Assembly: GCF_038751955.1 (NCBI RefSeq)
Contig: NZ_JBCEXH010000005.1
Location: 62,001-126,000, forward strand
Direction of reading: 5' to 3'
DNA: 64,000 nucleotides
Origin: Methanocalculus natronophilus
Lineage (GTDB): Archaea > Halobacteriota > Methanomicrobia > Methanomicrobiales > Methanocorpusculaceae
Below the pieces are notes generated by a model. The model saw nothing but the letters and a program-made list of their open reading frames with translations, was not told the DNA's origin and did not search any database. Within the stretch, counting starts at the first letter, position 1. Every line of letters starts with the position of its first letter. Made by a program: the position numbers and the translations under genes. This document shows positions 54,370 through 64,000 of the stretch, piece after piece.

Positions 54370-54758
54370 GTTGCCGGGTGGTTTCACTTCGAACACTTTT
54401 CAACCCCATTTACCCCTTATTTCAAAATCAAACCGAAATCCTTGTTGCAGTGACATTTCGGAGCAATATTTTGGCACCCCTGATCCCGATTTTCACCCTC
54501 GCAATGTAGCCCATTTGATGTTGCCGGGTAGTTTCACCAAAGCCATTATTCCAGCTCATTTAAGCTGGTTTCAAATTTTAACGGAAATCCTTGTTGCACA
54601 GAAATCTCCTTTCGGCAATTCCACATTACCATCTCAGTTTTCAACCACACAGTGCAGCCCTTTTTTTGTTGCCATTTAGTTGCCGGGTAGTTGCAGATGA
54701 ACCATTAATTCGCCCATATTCCCATCTTTTTCAAAATTCAAGGAGATTCCTTGTTGCA
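54370..54758 (+). repeat. Three ~80-bp direct repeats with ~75-bp spacers
   Basis: Units at 54370-54449, 54520-54598 and 54679-54758 each begin GTTGCCGGGTRGTT and end with (A/G)A(A/T)TCCTTGTTGCA, with a shared TTTCAAAAT-like middle. Unit 2 contains the palindrome CCAGCTCATTTAAGCTGG at 54551-54568. The units are imperfect, so they are old, and no gene overlaps them. Confidence 0.75.
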
Positions 54759-54830
54759 GGAAAAATTCCACCAGTTTTTTCCCTCTTAATCATCACGTTT
54801 GCCGGACTTCCGGACTTGTGTTGTGGTTCT

Positions 54831-54999
54831 ATTTGACGGGTATTTGACAGCCATAGAAAGAAAACGCTGATTCAAGCTCTAATCGCGGATACAAGCAATT
54901 CTGTATTTGATGGGTATTTGACGGGTATTTGACAACCATAATGCGAAAAGGTCATTTCAAGCCCTGATTTCAAATCAGAGCAAAATTGTATTTGATAGA
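54831..54999 (+). repeat. Two 85-bp direct repeats (ATTTGACGGGTATTTGACA units)
   Basis: Copies at 54831-54915 and 54916-54999 share the start ATTTGACGGGTATTTGACARCC, an internal TTCAAGC, and the end TGTATTTGAT. A partial third unit follows to about 55035. This leads up to the restriction operon; the stretch 54317-55328 holds no credible gene. Confidence 0.75.
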
Positions 55000-55328: not shown

Positions 55329-56903
55329 ATGAACCATAACGGAAATCATATCGAATCACGGCTCTGGGCAGCAGCCGATGAGCTGCGTGCCAACTCCAGG
55401 CTGAAGTCATCTGAATACTCAGTTCCTGTTCTCGGGCTCGTCTTCCTCAGGTATGCTGACCACCGGTTCCAGGCAGCAGCAGCAATGATAGAAGGCGGGG
55501 GGAGCGGAAGCAAAAGCGTTGGCAGGAGCCGTCGGCGGACAATTGGCCCTGACGATTACAAGGCACAAGGTGTTCTCTTCCTGCCTGAGGAGGCACGATT
55601 TGGGACGCTGATGAGGCTCACGGAGGCATCCAATATCGGAGAAGCGATCAACGAGGCGATGCGGGCAATTGAGGTTCATAACCAGGATCTGAAGGGAGTG
55701 CTCCCCCGGAACTACAACCGCTTCGAGAATGCATTATTGATGGAACTTCTCAAGACCATGAACTCGATACCGATGGATATCGAGGGAGATGCGTTCGGGA
55801 GGATCTATGAGTACTTCCTCGGCAATTTCGCACGGGCAGAAGGACAGAAAGGCGGGGAGTTCTTCACCCCGCTCGCACTTGTCCGGCTGATCGTCGCCAT
55901 CATCGAGCCGTTCCATGGGAGGATCTATGATCCCGCCTGCGGGTCCGGCGGTATGTTCGTCCAGAGTGCCCGGTTTGTGGAGGAGCACCGGAAAAATCCG
56001 GGATCTGATCTGAGCATCTTCGGGCAGGAGAAGGTCGAGGAGACCGTCCGGCTCGGGAAGATGAACCTCGCGGTCCACGGCCTTTCAGGGGATATCCGCG
56101 AGGGGAACGCCTATTATGAGGATCTCCACAAATCACCCGGCAGATTTGATTTTGTGATGGCAAATCCCCCCTTCAATGTTGACCGGGTGGATAAGGAGCG
56201 GCTGAAAGATGACCCCCGATTCCCCTTCGGGCTCCCCCGTGTTGATAACGGCAACTACCTCTGGATACAGATCTTCTATAGTGCACTCAACGAGAACGGG
56301 CGGGCGGGCTTTGTGATGGCGAACTCCGCATCCGACGCCCGAAGTTCCGAGTGTGATATCAGGCGGCAGATCATCGCCGACCGTGCCGTCGATGTGATGG
56401 TCGCCGTCGGCTCGAACTTCTTCTATACCGTCACCCTCCCCTGCACCCTCTGGTTCTTTGATAAAGCCAAGCGGAAGACCGACCGGGCCGACCAGATCCT
56501 CTTCATCGACGCACGGCATATCTACACCCAGGTCGACCGTGCCCACCGGGACTGGACACCCGCACAGATCGAGTTCCTCGCCAATATCGCCCGCCTCTAC
56601 CGGGGCGAGGCAGCAGAGAACCTCCACGAAAGTGCTGACCTGATGGCTGAGCACTTCCCGGACGGAACCTACATCGATATCCCCGGCCTCTGCAAAGTGG
56701 CGACCATCGAGGAGGTGGAGGCACAGGGCTTCAGCCTCAATCCAGGCCGGTATGTGGGAGTGAAGGCACGGGAAGAGGATGACTTCGACTTCAGGGAGCG
56801 GCTTGAGGAGCTGAACGAGGAGCTGGAGTTGCTCACCCTGGAGGCGAGGGAGCTTGAGGAGCGGATCGCGGAGAATGTGGGGAAGTTATTGGAGGGGGAA
56901 TAG
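55329..56903 (+). CDS. hsdM: Type I restriction-modification methyltransferase subunit
   Basis: This 524-residue N6-adenine methyltransferase has an HsdM N-terminal helical domain ([33 protein letters not shown]), SAM motif [11 protein letters not shown] (from Asp201) and catalytic motif NPPF (from Asn279). A C-terminal coiled coil is rich in Glu/Leu. With HsdS it methylates and with HsdR restricts DNA. The ATG at 55329 matches the family start; the frame is open upstream but without homology. Confidence 0.95.
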
Positions 56904-57152: not shown

Positions 57153-58337
57153 GTGGCGGGAAAATGGAATAAAATATCTTTAGGTGAGGTTTTAACTTTT
57201 CAAAGAGGATTTGATATCACAAAAGCTGAACAAAAGAATGGATCATACCCTGTTTTCTCTTCCTCTGGCTATAAATCAAATCATTCTGAATATAAAGTTC
57301 GAGGTCCAGGTGTTATCATTGGTCGAAAGGGTACTTTAGGTACTGTTTTCTATTCAAAAACAAACTTTTGGCCACATGATACCACTCTTTGGGTGAGAGA
57401 TTTTCACAACAATGAGCCGAAATTCGCTTACTATTTCCTTCAAACAATGGGCTTCGAGCGATTAGATGCTGGAGCCTCAAACCCTACTCTCAACCGGAAC
57501 CACATACATACCCTTAAAATCAAATGGCCTCCCCTCCCCACCCAACACAAAATCGCCGCCATCCTCTCCGCCTACGACGACCTCATCGAGAATAACACCC
57601 GGCGCATCAAAATCCTTGAGGAGATGGCGCAGAACCTCTACCGCGAGTGGTTCGTCAAGTTCCGCTTCCCCGGCCACGAGCACGCCCAGTTTGTGGACTC
57701 GCCTCTGGGGCGGATTCCGGAGGGGTGGGAAGTAATGGAGTTAAGAAACATTGTTGTTCTCTGTCGAAATGGTGTTCAACCAAAGGAATATCCAGAAGAA
57801 ATTTTTGAATACTTTAGTTTTCCTGCATATGATTCAGGGAAGTTGCCTGCAATTGAAAAAGGTAGTGAGATTAAAAGTAGCAAATATCTAGTACCACAGG
57901 ACTGTGTATTAGTCCCGAAATTGAACCCTCATATATCCAGAGTATGGCTTCCAAAACCAAAAAATAATCTTCGGTCTATAGCTTCAACTGAATATCTCAT
58001 TTTAGAACCCAAAAGGGGTTCTTCAGCATATTATTATGTTTTTTTTAGTCGACCAGAAATGATAGAGAAACTTGCAGGTCGTGCTGATGGAACATCAACT
58101 AGTCATAAGAGACTTAAACCAGTTGATTTTTTAGATCAGTTAGTAGTTATGCCACCAGACTCTATTACGGATTCTTTCGACTTACAAATAATACCTATGA
58201 TGGATATAATAGATACTTTAATTAATACTAACACCACCCTCCGCACCACCCGCGACCTCCTCCTCCCCAAGCTCATCTCCGGCGGGGTGGATGTTTCAGA
58301 AATAGATATAACGATTCCAGTTGAGGTTAAAACATGA
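57153..58337 (+). CDS. hsdS: Type I R-M specificity subunit
   Basis: This 394-residue protein has two target recognition domains (about 1-115 and 195-355), each followed by a conserved helical spacer (PLPTQHKIAAILSAYDDLIENNTRRIKILEEMAQNLYREWF, and NTTLRTTRDLLLPKLISGGVDVS). It selects the two half-sites of the DNA target. The recognition domains are clearly AT-rich, while the spacers are GC-rich like hsdM, a mosaic typical of domain exchange. The start is a GTG at 57153. The last codons overlap the next gene as ATGA. Confidence 0.93.
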   Translation: MAGKWNKISLGEVLTFQRGFDITKAEQKNGSYPVFSSSGYKSNHSEYKVRGPGVIIGRKGTLGTVFYSKTNFWPHDTTLWVRDFHNNEPKFAYYFLQTMGFERLDAGASNPTLNRNHIHTLKIKWPPLPTQHKIAAILSAYDDLIENNTRRIKILEEMAQNLYREWFVKFRFPGHEHAQFVDSPLGRIPEGWEVMELRNIVVLCRNGVQPKEYPEEIFEYFSFPAYDSGKLPAIEKGSEIKSSKYLVPQDCVLVPKLNPHISRVWLPKPKNNLRSIASTEYLILEPKRGSSAYYYVFFSRPEMIEKLAGRADGTSTSHKRLKPVDFLDQLVVMPPDSITDSFDLQIIPMMDIIDTLINTNTTLRTTRDLLLPKLISGGVDVSEIDITIPVEVKT

Positions 58338-60607
58338 CTGATACTGTTTTTACAAAAGTTGACTATGATCTCAATTCTCTGATAAAATATATTAGCATGG
58401 GGAATATTGGGCTGCCTGATATCCAGCGACCCTTTGTCTGGAAGAATACCAAGGTGCGTGATCTCTTTGACTCAATGTACAGAGGATATCCGGTTGGGTA
58501 CCTCCTTTTCTGGAAGAATGCTCTTACCGATGATAACCAAATCAATAAAGCGAAAAAAACCATCGGATCAGATCCAAAGCAGAAAACTCCAGATCTTGTC
58601 ATTGTAGATGGTCAACAGCGCCTAACGTCCCTTTATGCTGTTATAAAGAATATTCCAGTATTACGAGATACCTTTGAGACAGAGCAGATTCGCATCGCCT
58701 TTAATCCACTCGAAGAAAAGTTTGAGGTAACTGATGCTGCAATACTTCGTGATAAAGCGTACATTTCAGATATTTCTGTGATATGGAATGATAACACAGA
58801 TCTCTTTGAAGTTGTTGATAACTATCTGGATGAATTGAGCAAAACCCGTGAAGTAACAGCAGAAGAAAATAAAGCTATTAAAAAAGCCATCAGCAAACTC
58901 AATGGCTTGTTGAGCTTCCCATTTACCGCCCTTGAATTGGCATCTGACATCAACGAAGAGGCCGTATCCGAAGTCTTCGTCCGCATTAACAGCAAGGGAA
59001 CACCGTTGAATCAGGCAGACTTTATCCTGACCCTGATGTCGGTCTTCTGGGATGAGGGGCGTGCCGAACTCGAAAAATTCTGCCGTGAATCACGCAAACC
59101 ATCAAAAGGAACTGCTTCTCCATTTAACTACTTTATCGAGCCATCGCCAGATCAGCTCCTCCGGGTAAGTGTAGGTGTTGCCTTTAAACGTGCCAGACTC
59201 AAGTATGTCTACTCCATCCTGCGGGGGAAGGATCTGGAAACAGAAGAATTCAGTATTGAGAGGCGTGAAAAGCAGTTTGAAATCCTGAAAGACGCCCAGA
59301 AAAGAGTCCTGAATCTGCAATACTGGCATGACTTTTTGAACTGCATCCGCCAGGCTGGTTTTCGTAGCAAGGGGATGATCAGTTCAAACAGCAACCTTCT
59401 GTTCTCCTATATGCTGTATCTGATCGGCAGAACCGAATACAAGGTTCCAGAGTACGATCTCAGGCAGATTATTGCACGATGGTTCTTTATGTCGGCTGTT
59501 ACCGGCCGATTTACCAGTTCACCCGAATCTGCGATGGAATTTGATCTTGCCCGGTTGCGGGATGTCAAATCTGCTGATGATTTCGTGAATAATCTGACCA
59601 AAATCTGTGAGATTACCCTTACGAACGACTTCTGGGCAGTCAATCTTCCAAACGACCTTGCCACATCATCATCACGGAGCCCGTCACTTTTTGCCTACTA
59701 TGCAGCCCAGGTATTACTGGATGCAAATGGTTTATTTTCAAAGATAAAAATCGCTGATCTTCTCGATCCAACCACGAATGCACATAAAAGCGCACTCGAA
59801 CGCCACCATCTCTTCCCCAAAGATTATCTGAAAAACCAGGGATTCCAGGGAACTCGTGAGATTAACCAGATTGCAAACTATGCCCTTGTTGAGTGGGGGG
59901 ATAACATTCAGATCTCAAATAATGCTCCAGAAGAGTACGTTCCTAAAATAAAAAGCCGGTTTTTTCAATCTGAAATCGAAAAAATGTACCGTCTGCATGC
60001 TCTCCCACCAAACTGGGAGCATATGGAATACCGGGACTTTCTGGAGAATCGCAGGGAACTGATGGCACAGATCATCGCAGAAGGGTATAGAATCCTTGTT
60101 TCAGGTCAATCAGAGGAAGATACCAGTCCTGATGAAATTAATCTGATATCATTGGTTCAGTCAGGAGAATCCGAAGCAGTTGAGTTCAAGTCCACACTCC
60201 GGACGAATCTGCATACAAACAACAGAGATCAGCGAATGGAGCAGTCTGTTCTTAAAACACTCGCCGGTTTCTTAAACACGAATGGTGGAACATTGATCAT
60301 CGGACTCTCAGATGATGGCAGCCCTGTCGGAATTGATGTGGATGGCTTTGAAAATGAGGATAAGATGAGTCTTCACCTTGTCAATATCATCAAAGCCCGT
60401 ATGGGGATCTCAGCAATGACCAATGTGCATATTCATTTTGATGATCATAAGAACTCGCGTGTCATGGCCGTGAATTGTCAGAAATCTCCTTCCCCGGTAT
60501 TTGTGAAAGATAATGAGATAGAACGGTTCTATATCCGGACCGGACCATCCACCACTGAGTTAAGTGCAAGCCAGACACAGGAATTTATCAAACAGAGGTT
60601 TCGCTAA
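58334..60607 (+). CDS. GmrSD-like DUF262/HNH protein fused to an AlbA domain
   Basis: This 757-residue protein has a DUF262 domain with GLPDIQRPFVWK and the nucleotide-hydrolysis motif DGQQR at 92-96, and FVRINSKGTPLNQADFILTLMS. A helical middle follows, then a DUF1524-like HNH nuclease part with ERHHLFPKDYL at about His491-His492. At the end (about 608-757) is an AlbA_2/Schlafen-type domain (ESEAVEFKSTLR, LNTNGGTLIIGLSDDGSPVGID). DUF262/DUF1524 proteins are type IV restriction enzymes that cut modified phage DNA; the AlbA fusion is unusual. It is translationally coupled to hsdS, so it belongs to the operon. Confidence 0.9.
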   Translation: MTDTVFTKVDYDLNSLIKYISMGNIGLPDIQRPFVWKNTKVRDLFDSMYRGYPVGYLLFWKNALTDDNQINKAKKTIGSDPKQKTPDLVIVDGQQRLTSLYAVIKNIPVLRDTFETEQIRIAFNPLEEKFEVTDAAILRDKAYISDISVIWNDNTDLFEVVDNYLDELSKTREVTAEENKAIKKAISKLNGLLSFPFTALELASDINEEAVSEVFVRINSKGTPLNQADFILTLMSVFWDEGRAELEKFCRESRKPSKGTASPFNYFIEPSPDQLLRVSVGVAFKRARLKYVYSILRGKDLETEEFSIERREKQFEILKDAQKRVLNLQYWHDFLNCIRQAGFRSKGMISSNSNLLFSYMLYLIGRTEYKVPEYDLRQIIARWFFMSAVTGRFTSSPESAMEFDLARLRDVKSADDFVNNLTKICEITLTNDFWAVNLPNDLATSSSRSPSLFAYYAAQVLLDANGLFSKIKIADLLDPTTNAHKSALERHHLFPKDYLKNQGFQGTREINQIANYALVEWGDNIQISNNAPEEYVPKIKSRFFQSEIEKMYRLHALPPNWEHMEYRDFLENRRELMAQIIAEGYRILVSGQSEEDTSPDEINLISLVQSGESEAVEFKSTLRTNLHTNNRDQRMEQSVLKTLAGFLNTNGGTLIIGLSDDGSPVGIDVDGFENEDKMSLHLVNIIKARMGISAMTNVHIHFDDHKNSRVMAVNCQKSPSPVFVKDNEIERFYIRTGPSTTELSASQTQEFIKQRFR

Positions 60608-60635: not shown

Positions 60636-62390
60636 ATGACCACCCCCGCCGATCTCAGCATCCTCCTCCAGGAGGGCGAAGGCGTCACGCTCGAGTACAA
60701 GGAGCGAGTGAACGACTCCTTCGCCCGTGAGCTTGTCGCCTTTGCCAATACCGCCGGGGGCCGTGTCCTCCTTGGGGTGCGGGATGACGGGACCGTGAAG
60801 GGGATTTCGGATACCAATGATCTCCGTGCCAGAATTCAGGATATCGCCCGGAAATGCGATCCCCCGGTAAAGGTTCTGCTTGAGCGGATCGGCGAGGTGA
60901 CGGTGGTGACCGTCCGGGAGAGTACAGAGAAGCCGGTCCAGTGCAGTGACGGCTTCTTCTGGCGGCTTGGGGCGGTCTCGCAGAAGCTCTCCCGGAATGA
61001 GATCCGGGATCTCTTCCAGCAGGAGGGTGCGATCCGGTTCGATCACTCCGTCTGCACCCGGTTCTCCTATCCTGAGGACTTTGATACCGATAAATTCAGG
61101 AACTGGCTTGGAAAGAGCAGCATCTACCGGGATGGATCGGTCGAGGATGTCCTCGTCAATATCGAGGCGGCAGAACGATCAGGGGGGAGGCTCCTCTTCA
61201 GGAACGCCGGTGTCCTCTTCTTTGCAAAAGAGCCCCGCCGGTTCTTCAACCAGGCATACATCACCTGCCTCCTCTTCAAAGGCACTGTCAAGGTCCATAT
61301 CCTTGACCGGAAGGACTTCGACGGCGGCATCATCGCGGATATCGAGGATGCACTCCGTTTCATCGAACGGAACACACGGACCGCATACCGGATCGAGAAA
61401 CTCCAGCGGGAGGATATACCCGAGTACCCGATGGCAGCACTCCGGGAGGCGATCACAAACGCCGTCATGCACCGGGACTGGTTCTTGGAGGGCGCAAATG
61501 TCTTTGTGGAGATATTCACTGATAGAATCGAAGTCTCAAGCCCCGGCGGGCTCCCAAAAGGGATGCAGGTTTCTGATCTTGGCCATAAGAGTGTCCGGAG
61601 AAATCCACTCATCGCTGATCTCCTGCACCGGATTGCCTATATCGAAAAAGCCGGAACAGGGATCAAGCGGATGCGGGACGGTGCAACAACGCTTGGCTAT
61701 CCTGCGCCGGAATTCAGATCAGACAGCTTCTTTTCGGCGATATTCTATCCAATGCCGATTGGTGAGATGGAAAAGGCCGGTGAGGAGACAGGTCGGTACC
61801 ATGCAAGTACCCCGCAGGTACCCCGCAGGTACCCCGCAAGTACCCCGCAAGTTGTTAACATATTACAAGCCGCATGTGATGAACTCAAATCACGTGATGA
61901 GCTTCAGGAAGCTGCGGAACTCAAAGATAGAGAGAACTTCCGTAAAAACTACTTAAAACCCCTTTTAGAAGACGGTTTCCTTGAACCAATGATTCCAGAT
62001 AAGCCAAGCAGCTCAAACCAGCGGTACCGCACAACCGCCGCCGGACGTGCATTTATCGAAGCGGCTTCGGAGGAGAAGGCCGGTGAGAAAACACGCAGGC
62101 ACCCCGCAAGTAACCCGCAGGTACCCCGCAGGTACCCCGCAGGTACCCCGCAAGTTGTTAACATATTACAAGCCGCACGTGATGAACTCAAATCACGTGA
62201 TGAGCTTCAGGAAGCTGCGGGACTCAAAGATAGAGAGAACTTCCGTAAAAACTACTTAAAACCCCTTTTTGAAGACGGGCTCCTTGAACCAATGATCCCA
62301 GATAAGCCAAGCAGCTCGAAGCAGCGGTACCGCACAACCGCTGCTGGGCTGGCTCTCATCGAAGCAGCTTTGGAGGAGGAGGAGAGATGA
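60636..62390 (+). CDS. AlbA_2/Schlafen-domain protein (RecG-like ATPase-type C-terminus) with duplicated winged helix
   Basis: This 584-residue protein has an N-terminal AlbA_2 domain (GEGVTLEYKERVNDSFARELVAFANTAGGRVLLGVRDDG) and a HATPase_c_4-like middle (REAITNAVMHRDWFLEGANVFVEIFTDRIEVSSPGGLP, EKAGTGIKRMRD). Two nearly identical 101-residue winged-helix-like units follow (about 379-480 and 480-581), joined by linkers encoded by 11-bp tandem repeats. The gene lies 28 bases after the DUF262 gene and its stop overlaps hsdR as ATGA. It is probably an accessory or regulatory DNA-binding part of the operon. Confidence 0.88.
   Translation: MTTPADLSILLQEGEGVTLEYKERVNDSFARELVAFANTAGGRVLLGVRDDGTVKGISDTNDLRARIQDIARKCDPPVKVLLERIGEVTVVTVRESTEKPVQCSDGFFWRLGAVSQKLSRNEIRDLFQQEGAIRFDHSVCTRFSYPEDFDTDKFRNWLGKSSIYRDGSVEDVLVNIEAAERSGGRLLFRNAGVLFFAKEPRRFFNQAYITCLLFKGTVKVHILDRKDFDGGIIADIEDALRFIERNTRTAYRIEKLQREDIPEYPMAALREAITNAVMHRDWFLEGANVFVEIFTDRIEVSSPGGLPKGMQVSDLGHKSVRRNPLIADLLHRIAYIEKAGTGIKRMRDGATTLGYPAPEFRSDSFFSAIFYPMPIGEMEKAGEETGRYHASTPQVPRRYPASTPQVVNILQAACDELKSRDELQEAAELKDRENFRKNYLKPLLEDGFLEPMIPDKPSSSNQRYRTTAAGRAFIEAASEEKAGEKTRRHPASNPQVPRRYPAGTPQVVNILQAARDELKSRDELQEAAGLKDRENFRKNYLKPLFEDGLLEPMIPDKPSSSKQRYRTTAAGLALIEAALEEEER
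61796..61850 (+). repeat. 11-bp tandem repeat GTACCCCGCAR x5, first array
   Basis: Five units (first slightly changed) are read successively in all three frames to give STPQVPRRYPA-type linker. Since 11 is not a multiple of 3, gain or loss of one unit would shift the frame. Confidence 0.9.
62099..62153 (+). repeat. 11-bp tandem repeat GTACCCCGCAR x5, second array
   Basis: This second copy of the array is carried by the 303-bp duplication, again with five units, the first two slightly changed. Confidence 0.9.
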
Positions 62391-64000
62391 CACCGGCAGG
62401 GTATACGGAAGACGAACTCGTTGAGAAGCCTGCAATTGAAGTCTTCAGAGAGCTCGGGTGGGAGGCGATCAACGCTTATGACGAGTTCGATCACGGTGTC
62501 AGCACCCTGGGCAGGGAGACGAAATCCGAGGTCATCCTCAAGAGAAATCTCCGGGATGCCCTGCTCCGGCTCAACCCGGATGCCCCGCTGGAGGCGATCC
62601 ATGAAGCCATTGCGGATCTCACCCGTGACCGCTCCCTGATGAGCATGGCCGCCGCCAACCAGGAGATCTATCACCTGCTGAAGAACGGCGTCCGGGTGCC
62701 GGTTCCGGACCCCGATGGCGATGGCGAGACGATTGAGCATCTCCGGATCATCGACTGGGAGAAGAGCAGAAACAACGACTTCCTCCTCTGTTCCCAGTTC
62801 TGGGTCACCGGGGAGATGCACACCCGGCGGGCCGATCTCGTCGGGTTCGTCAACGGCATCCCCCTCCTCCTGATCGAGCTGAAAGCCGCCCACCGGAGGC
62901 TTGAGACGGGATTTTCAGGCAATATCCGGGATTACAAAGACACCATCCCCCAGCTCTTCCGGCCAAATGCGATGATCATCGTCTCCAACGGGAGCCAGAG
63001 CCGGGTCGGGAGTGTCACGGCAGGGTGGGAACATTTTGCAGAATGGAAGAAGGTGGGGAGCGAGAGGGAGCCGGGGCGTGTCTCGCTTGAGACGATGCTT
63101 CATGGGATCTGTGCACCGGACCGCCTCCTCGATATCGTCGAGAACTTCACTCTCTTCCAGGAGATCCCGGGGGGTCTCATCAAGCTGGTAGCAAAGAATC
63201 ACCAGTACCTCGGGGTCAACAACGCAATCGATGCCCTCACAGATATCCGTGAACATGATGGAAAACTGGGTGTCTTCTGGCATACCCAGGGGAGCGGCAA
63301 AAGCATCTCGATGATCTTCTTCTCCCAGAAAGTGCTCCGTACCATTCCCGGCAACTGGACATTTGTCATCATCACCGACCGGCAGGAACTTGATAACCAG
63401 ATCTACAAGAATTTCGTATCAGCAGGAGTCGTAACCGAGAGAAGAGCAAAGGCAGATAGCAGTCGCCACCTCCGCCAGCTCCTCACCGAGGATCACCGCT
63501 ACGTCTTCAGCCTCATTCACAAGTTCAGAACTGAAAAAGGGGAGAGCCACCCTGTGCTCTCTGAGCGGGATGATATCATCGTCATCACCGACGAGGCGCA
63601 CCGGAGCCAGTACGATACCCTCGCGCTGAATATGAGAACAGCTCTCCCAAACGCCTCCTTCCTCGCCTTTACCGGCACCCCCTTAATCATCACCGAAGAG
63701 AAGACCCGGCAGGTCTTCGGCGAGTATGTCAGTGTCTATGACTTCAAGCAGTCGGTCGATGACGGGGCAACGGTTCCACTCTACTATGAGAACCGCATCC
63801 CGCAGCTCCAGCTGACAAACGAGAACCTGAATGCAGATATGGCAGAGCTCCTTGAAGCTGCTGAGCTTGACGAGGGACAGGAGAAGAAGCTTGAGCGTGA
63901 ATTTGCACGTGAATACCACCTGATCACACGGGATGACCGGCTTGAGGCAATTGCACGCGATATCGTCGATCACTTCACAGGACGTGGCTTTCGAGGCAAG
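62387..64000 (+). CDS. hsdR: Type I restriction endonuclease subunit, N-terminal 538 residues (runs off the window)
   Basis: The gene starts at ATG 62387, overlapping the AlbA gene stop, with a GGAGGAGGAGAG ribosome site. The nuclease domain includes ADLVGFVNGIPLLLIELKAAHR (D...E-x-K). The motor domain includes Walker A WHTQGSGKS (about 298-306), TDRQELDNQIY, the DEAH box ITDEAHRSQYD (about 400) and FTGTPL. It translocates and cuts unmodified DNA as part of the HsdRMS complex. The frame is open to the window edge. Confidence 0.95.
   Translation, partial: MTPAGYTEDELVEKPAIEVFRELGWEAINAYDEFDHGVSTLGRETKSEVILKRNLRDALLRLNPDAPLEAIHEAIADLTRDRSLMSMAAANQEIYHLLKNGVRVPVPDPDGDGETIEHLRIIDWEKSRNNDFLLCSQFWVTGEMHTRRADLVGFVNGIPLLLIELKAAHRRLETGFSGNIRDYKDTIPQLFRPNAMIIVSNGSQSRVGSVTAGWEHFAEWKKVGSEREPGRVSLETMLHGICAPDRLLDIVENFTLFQEIPGGLIKLVAKNHQYLGVNNAIDALTDIREHDGKLGVFWHTQGSGKSISMIFFSQKVLRTIPGNWTFVIITDRQELDNQIYKNFVSAGVVTERRAKADSSRHLRQLLTEDHRYVFSLIHKFRTEKGESHPVLSERDDIIVITDEAHRSQYDTLALNMRTALPNASFLAFTGTPLIITEEKTRQVFGEYVSVYDFKQSVDDGATVPLYYENRIPQLQLTNENLNADMAELLEAAELDEGQEKKLEREFAREYHLITRDDRLEAIARDIVDHFTGRGFRGK

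What the first reader, a model, noticed from the sequence alone, without database searches (positions are those of the whole stretch)
61772..62390. Frame-shifting 11-bp repeats and a fresh 303-bp duplication just before hsdR: possible phase-variable switch
Two arrays of five 11-bp units lie in a coding region, and 11 is not divisible by three. Loss or gain of one unit would end the AlbA protein early and uncouple translation of hsdR, which depends on the ATGA overlap. The 303-bp duplication is nearly unchanged and gives RecA a substrate to delete or expand the unit. Both features would allow reversible control of restriction.
Basis: partly seen in the sequence, partly recalled or inferred. Interest (0 to 1): 0.6.

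Follow-up and report, generated by a model that had tools for sequence, protein, structure and literature searches.

The report
Repeat-coded linker before swappable DNA-binding modules
Just before the cutting-subunit gene of a methanogen's restriction system lies a gene whose two 11-base repeat arrays encode floppy linkers to a duplicated, exchangeable winged-helix module; the arrays could shift the reading frame, but relatives keep them in frame, so a routine on/off switch is possible but not supported.

Summary
Two arrays of five 11-bp units (61795-61849, 62094-62152) lie in one 584-codon gene inside a type I restriction operon of a Methanocalculus-type archaeon, and the 303-bp unit around them is tandemly duplicated (274/303 identical, so not fresh). 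A one-unit change would truncate the protein. The gene encodes a Schlafen/AlbA_2 plus ATPase head joined to two Fic-like_C winged-helix (wHTH) modules. The arrays encode disordered linkers. Such linker repeats precede this domain across bacteria and archaea, always with period 11 or 12 bp in the unselected sets. Related Methanocalculus arrays keep the frame: five units in four species, and in a fifth six units including one 12-bp unit. Genes with an intact head are in frame in 30 of 31 11-bp arrays. One clean natural out-of-frame allele exists, one unit shorter than a 98%-identical relative. Loss of a 303-bp module is in frame and would not switch hsdR off; one species naturally has a single module. 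What varies at this locus is the wHTH: two types (about 50% identical DNA) sit between conserved flanks, with conflicting trees. That indicates cassette swapping with the array at the 5' joint. I read the arrays as frame-constrained linker minisatellites; phase variation is possible but unproven.

The parts
60636..62390 (+). gene with both arrays: SLFN_AlbA_2 + HATPase_c_4 + two Fic-like_C winged-helix modules, 584 aa
   Evidence: open frame; Pfam PF04326, PF13749, PF21247 with 2 stretches
60636..61769 (+). head: Schlafen/AlbA_2 domain and ATPase (RecG-C-like) domain, 94-96% aa identical in three congeners
61769..62071 (+). 303-bp module, copy 1 (array + winged helix)
62072..62374 (+). 303-bp module, copy 2; 274/303 identical to copy 1
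61795..61849 (+). array 1: five 11-bp units (GTACCCCGCAR), perfect tract 61807-61838; encodes disordered linker about residues 387-405
   Evidence: pLDDT under 50 at residues 376-402
62094..62152 (+). array 2: five 11-bp units, perfect tract 62114-62152; encodes disordered linker
   Evidence: pLDDT under 50 at residues 481-500
61857..62064 (+). winged helix 1 (Fic-like_C)
   Evidence: solved relative 4rgl, E 2e-9
62160..62370 (+). winged helix 2 (Fic-like_C); the first about 120-150 bp are the segment swapped between species
62372..62390 (+). Shine-Dalgarno-like GGAGGAGGAGGAG and ATGA stop/start overlap with hsdR; NTGA overlap and purine-rich SD-like stretch in five species
62387..64000 (+). 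hsdR (runs past the window end; 1051 aa in the genome)
58334..60607 (+). GmrSD_N protein with its own C-terminal SLFN_AlbA_2 domain; present in G014, not found between hsdS and the head in G018 and G012
57153..58337 (+). hsdS; only 36-42% aa identical in the congeners
55329..56903 (+). hsdM; 92-94% aa identical in the congeners

Best explanation
The arrays are a minisatellite that encodes a disordered linker between an enzyme head (Schlafen/AlbA_2 + ATPase, by published analogy a backup RNase effector) and C-terminal winged-helix modules, in an accessory gene of a type I restriction operon. The 11-bp unit runs through all three frames (TPQVPRRYPAS) and most likely derives from the 12-bp TPQV repeat usual at this place by loss of one base per unit. 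Units turn over and modules duplicate and are exchanged by recombination in or near the array, but selection keeps the reading frame open in the lineages sampled. Shown: array, frame effect, linker disorder (predicted), frame and length conservation, module swapping with the array at its 5' side. Inferred: origin from 12-bp units, the head's RNase role, the wHTH as a target- or partner-recognition part whose diversity is selected, the array as the actual recombination joint, and continuous translation into hsdR as a reason why frame is kept.
For: Unselected wHTH sets show repeats of period 11 (17) or 12 (35) and no other among 8-19. Mixed 11/12 arrays exist. Array-coded residues have pLDDT under 50, and the modules after them mostly 65-87. 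Five-unit arrays in the window (twice), G014, G013 and G012; G018 has six units including one 12-bp unit, net +12 bp, in frame, in both modules. 30 of 31 intact-head 11-bp arrays in frame, against 1/3 expected under free slippage (relatedness not corrected). Trees: head groups window+G012 (99/99), hsdR groups window+G012+G013 (100/100), wHTH groups window+G014+G013 against G012+G018 (100/100). Identity falls to 48-50% at 62184-62273 between the types, against about 84-94% in the body of the head and 82-86% by 62304-62393. Module duplication also in G018 and in a Bacteroidia gene, L252. Head architecture described as Schlafen RNase + minimal histidine kinase + wHTH in BREX loci (PMC12839542).
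Against: One clean out-of-frame allele (L105) and several damaged ones show that unit loss does happen. Frame-broken copies seemed commoner with 11-bp than 12-bp arrays (8 of 39 against 0 of 31, p 0.007, hand count in a partly pattern-selected set), but not in unselected sets (1/17 against 0/31, p 0.35). One genome per species cannot show population variants. The recombination joint is placed only to within tens of bases.
Confidence: 0.62

Rival explanations
1. Phase-variable switch: slippage of 11-bp units turns the wHTH modules of the accessory protein, and by polarity or uncoupling HsdR, off and on.
For: Unit length not divisible by three; all single-unit changes truncate. Natural pair L080/L105 differs by exactly one unit, with an intact head and an intact wHTH in another frame. 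Capnocytophaga L083 is out of frame while L082/L073 are in frame. Known precedent: about 10% of type I systems carry simple sequence repeats in hsdS, hsdM or hsdR (PMC7394358).
Against: 30 of 31 intact-head arrays in frame; length conserved in the genus; perfect tracts of only 3-3.5 units, short for fast slippage (own knowledge of VNTR rates); L083 and most other out-of-frame genes have deletions or frame breaks elsewhere too; hsdR has its own SD-like site.
Confidence: 0.2
2. DNA-level element: the 11-bp units are binding sites on one helical face for a regulator (perhaps the wHTH itself) and are kept for that, the peptide being secondary.
For: The same unit occurs in noncoding clusters of 3-5 units, repeated about every 177 bp, upstream of an ATPase gene in M. 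taiwanensis and, fewer, in two congeners. 11 bp is close to one helical turn.
Against: Most arrays elsewhere are 12-bp, not helically phased; unit sequences differ between lineages (GTGGGGACCAA, GGCACTAAGAT); the in-frame requirement points to the peptide. No binding data.
Confidence: 0.07
3. Recombination joint first of all: the array is kept because it provides homology for swapping wHTH modules, and its coding as a linker is a by-product.
For: Type A and B wHTH change place next to the array; the G018 array 1 looks like a hybrid of both types with a 12-bp unit at the join; L098 and L110 share 95% identity from the array onward and none before it.
Against: Arrays of 3-5 imperfect units are short as homology; the 3' end of the swap lies in ordinary conserved coding sequence; only about 100 bases lie before the array in L110, so that break may be a contig-end artefact.
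Confidence: 0.08

Closest known systems
Schlafen-family RNase + minimal histidine-kinase-type ATPase + wHTH accessory proteins of BREX/BREX-related loci (PMC12839542)
   Same: Domain order AlbA_2/Schlafen, ATPase, wHTH; sits inside a defence operon
   Different: Here in a type I R-M operon, with two wHTH modules on repeat-coded linkers; RNase activity untested
Fic proteins with Fic-like_C domain (PF21247; 4rgl)
   Same: Same C-terminal wHTH and, in many, the same 11/12-bp linker repeats; a Fic gene lies between hsdS and hsdR in a Shewanella plasmid
   Different: Different enzyme head
Simple-sequence-repeat phase variation of type I R-M genes (PMC7394358)
   Same: Frame-changing repeat in a gene of the operon
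   Different: 11-bp imperfect units, accessory gene, frame conserved, no population variation shown
EcoR124 hsdS 12-bp repeats (from memory)
   Same: Short repeat array coding a spacer in a type I operon
   Different: Those are 12-bp, in hsdS, and change specificity without a frame change
Recombinational shuffling of hsdS target recognition domains
   Same: Domain exchange between conserved flanks in a type I operon
   Different: Here the wHTH of the accessory protein is exchanged, in one gene copy, between species

Membership tests
SSR phase-variable (contingency) locus | repeat unit not divisible by three inside an open frame | tested here: met
SSR phase-variable (contingency) locus | out-of-frame alleles common among otherwise intact genes | tested here: not met
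   1 of 31 intact-head arrays (L105)
SSR phase-variable (contingency) locus | copy number varies between close relatives | tested here: inconclusive
   constant in four Methanocalculus species, +12 bp in a fifth; one-unit difference L080/L105
SSR phase-variable (contingency) locus | variation within a clonal population and effect on expression | not testable with these tools
   no reads or strains available
Schlafen-ATPase-wHTH defence accessory protein | SLFN_AlbA_2, HATPase_c_4 and C-terminal wHTH in this order | tested here: met
   fold match 3lmm, E 3.8e-18, although TM-score only 0.3
Schlafen-ATPase-wHTH defence accessory protein | RNase activity | not testable with these tools
   not assayed; catalytic residues not checked
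Type I restriction-modification operon | hsdM, hsdS and hsdR together and open | tested here: met
Fic-like_C (PF21247) domain | match over the family cut-off | tested here: met
   140 bits against a cut-off of 27, two stretches

The most novel reading that the evidence does not exclude
Frame-changing 11-bp repeats in front of Fic-like_C winged helices are a widespread, so far unnamed contingency device in bacteria and archaea: slippage by one unit cuts the sensor/targeting module off Schlafen or Fic effectors, and the same array lets cells exchange the module.
Probability: 0.18. Interest if true: 0.68.

Novelty: new variant of a known kind. Interest (0 to 1): 0.45.

Why it matters
It names a recurrent, apparently undescribed feature: linkers of period exactly 11 or 12 bp before one winged-helix domain in defence-associated effectors from archaea to Bacteroidota. 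It also shows that this domain is exchanged between species while the rest of the gene stays, much as target-recognition domains are in hsdS. That suggests the wHTH is the part under diversifying selection, and it gives a testable guess at what these accessory proteins recognise.

Tried and rejected
Fresh duplication: rejected, 90% identical with mostly amino-acid-changing differences. Module loss as a switch of hsdR: rejected, in frame, and a single-module gene exists in G014. Three-frame openness as a sign of design: rejected, about 59% of random 11-mers at this composition are stop-free in all frames. Within-species test in E. coli genomes: no homologue found; plasmids and phages gave only distant hits. 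Viral contigs hold the 11- and 12-bp patterns, but no wHTH was found beside them. A broad pattern search in 393 Bacteroidales genomes gave only 3 genomes with a hit. Literature searches found no description of this linker array. No sigma-70-like promoter was found between the arrays and hsdR; this scan is not valid for archaea.

Full report
Observation. The gene at 60636-62390 (584 aa) lies between a GmrSD/AlbA_2 gene and hsdR in an operon with hsdM, hsdS and a full-length hsdR of 1051 aa. It has an AlbA_2/Schlafen domain, a HATPase_c_4 domain and two Fic-like_C winged helices. Two arrays of five 11-bp units (GTACCCCGCAR) lie just before each winged helix. Array plus winged helix form a 303-bp tandem duplication, 274/303 identical. 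None of 100 shuffles of the window has a match to the two-unit pattern.

Frame effect. In silico, one unit more or fewer in either array ends the protein 128-529 nt before the hsdR start; three units keep the frame. Loss of a whole module (303 bp) keeps the frame, and the genome G014 (UBA456) has exactly such a one-module gene, 482 aa, with the same kind of stop/start overlap. The NTGA overlap is conserved in five species, but all five also keep a purine-rich, Shine-Dalgarno-like stretch in front of the hsdR start, so dependence on coupling is open.

What the arrays encode. AlphaFold gives pLDDT below 50 at residues 376-402 and 481-500, which cover most of the array-coded residues, and block means mostly of 65-87 in the modules that follow (9-row alignment, mean 66.8, so only the pattern of confidence is used). 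The peptide TPQVPRRYPAS cycles through the three frames.

How general it is. In sets found by protein similarity without regard to repeats (Methanomicrobiales; Bacteroidia PF21247), the stretch before the winged helix carries a repeat of period 11 in 17 cases, period 12 in 35, no clear repeat in 24, and no other period. A pattern scan of 85,000 species found the GTACC-type 11-bp array in 39 stretches from Bacteroidota, Proteobacteria, Acidobacteria, Elusimicrobia, Omnitrophota, Methanocalculus and others, most of them before this domain, on either Fic or AlbA/ATPase heads. The 12-bp unit is simply TPQV or TPEV in frame. Mixed 11/12 arrays (L073, L088, L090, L107) and differing unit sequences with the same period (L036, L038, L043, L020) suggest repeated derivation of 11 from 12; this is inference.

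Is it a switch? For: L105 has exactly one unit less than the 97.8%-identical L080, so its Fic protein ends after the linker while the winged helix stays intact in another frame. Against: 30 of 31 intact-head 11-bp arrays are in frame (related sequences not down-weighted, and L105 added by hand because it was merged with L080). Other out-of-frame copies (L078, L083, L084, L098, L110, L123, L126, L274) have missing or broken heads. In Methanocalculus the count is five units in the window (both arrays), G014, G013 and G012; in G018 it is six with one 12-bp unit, net +12 bp. Frame is therefore maintained over species divergence. Frame-broken copies were commoner among 11-bp than 12-bp arrays in the pooled set (8 of 39 against 0 of 31) but not in unselected sets; the pooled set is partly chosen by pattern and was counted by hand, so this is weak.

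What does vary. Heads are 90-93% identical in DNA and hsdR 85-89%, while the winged helix comes in two types with 100/100 support: A in the window (twice), G014 and G013; B in G012 and G018 (twice). Identity drops to about 50% at 62184-62273 between types, against about 84-94% in the body of the head, and recovers to 82-86% by 62304-62393; the linker itself is already lower, 63-80%. Head and hsdR trees disagree with the winged-helix tree with high support. The simplest reading is exchange of a cassette whose 5' edge lies at or near the array. G018 carries its own duplication, 84-85% identical; the tree puts each pair together, which fits independent duplication or conversion.

Function. [quoted passage not shown] The present gene has that architecture in a type I operon. 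I infer that it is an accessory effector whose wHTH decides what it senses or binds. No activity was tested.

Limits. One genome per species; draft assemblies; no reads; the exact recombination joint and the age of the duplication are rough. Shown and inferred steps are listed apart in the best explanation.

Noticed in passing
L085:1831-2716; also L087:2482-2993 and L077:634-789: Noncoding clusters of the same 11-bp unit, about every 177 bp (six clusters) in M. taiwanensis, between an XRE/ImmA-type gene and an archaeal ATPase gene; fewer in two congeners.
   Followed up: partly
window 54830-54996: 85-bp imperfect repeat with 11-bp GTATTTGACGG units in the gap upstream of hsdM; the same gap has GTTGCCGGGTRGTTTCAC-like copies near 54374, 54519 and 54682.
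   Followed up: no
L241:8990-10000 (M. chunghsingensis): Array, one wHTH and hsdR are kept while the AlbA/ATPase head is not found in the 9 kb upstream; a transposase-like frame lies before it.
   Followed up: partly
L094 (minus strand, near 117): Relative of L080 with three units and the whole winged helix deleted, one end of the deletion at the array.
   Followed up: partly
L252 (G802): A Bacteroidia gene with two tandem array+wHTH modules on 12-bp repeats, only 52% alike.
   Followed up: partly
window 58334-60607: GmrSD_N protein with a C-terminal AlbA_2 domain; present in G014 but not seen between hsdS and the head in G018 and G012, so a variable insert of the operon.
   Followed up: partly
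L097:1-37: The contig of a Fluviicola MAG begins inside the array, as an assembly graph would break if variants coexisted; equally a plain repeat break.
   Followed up: no
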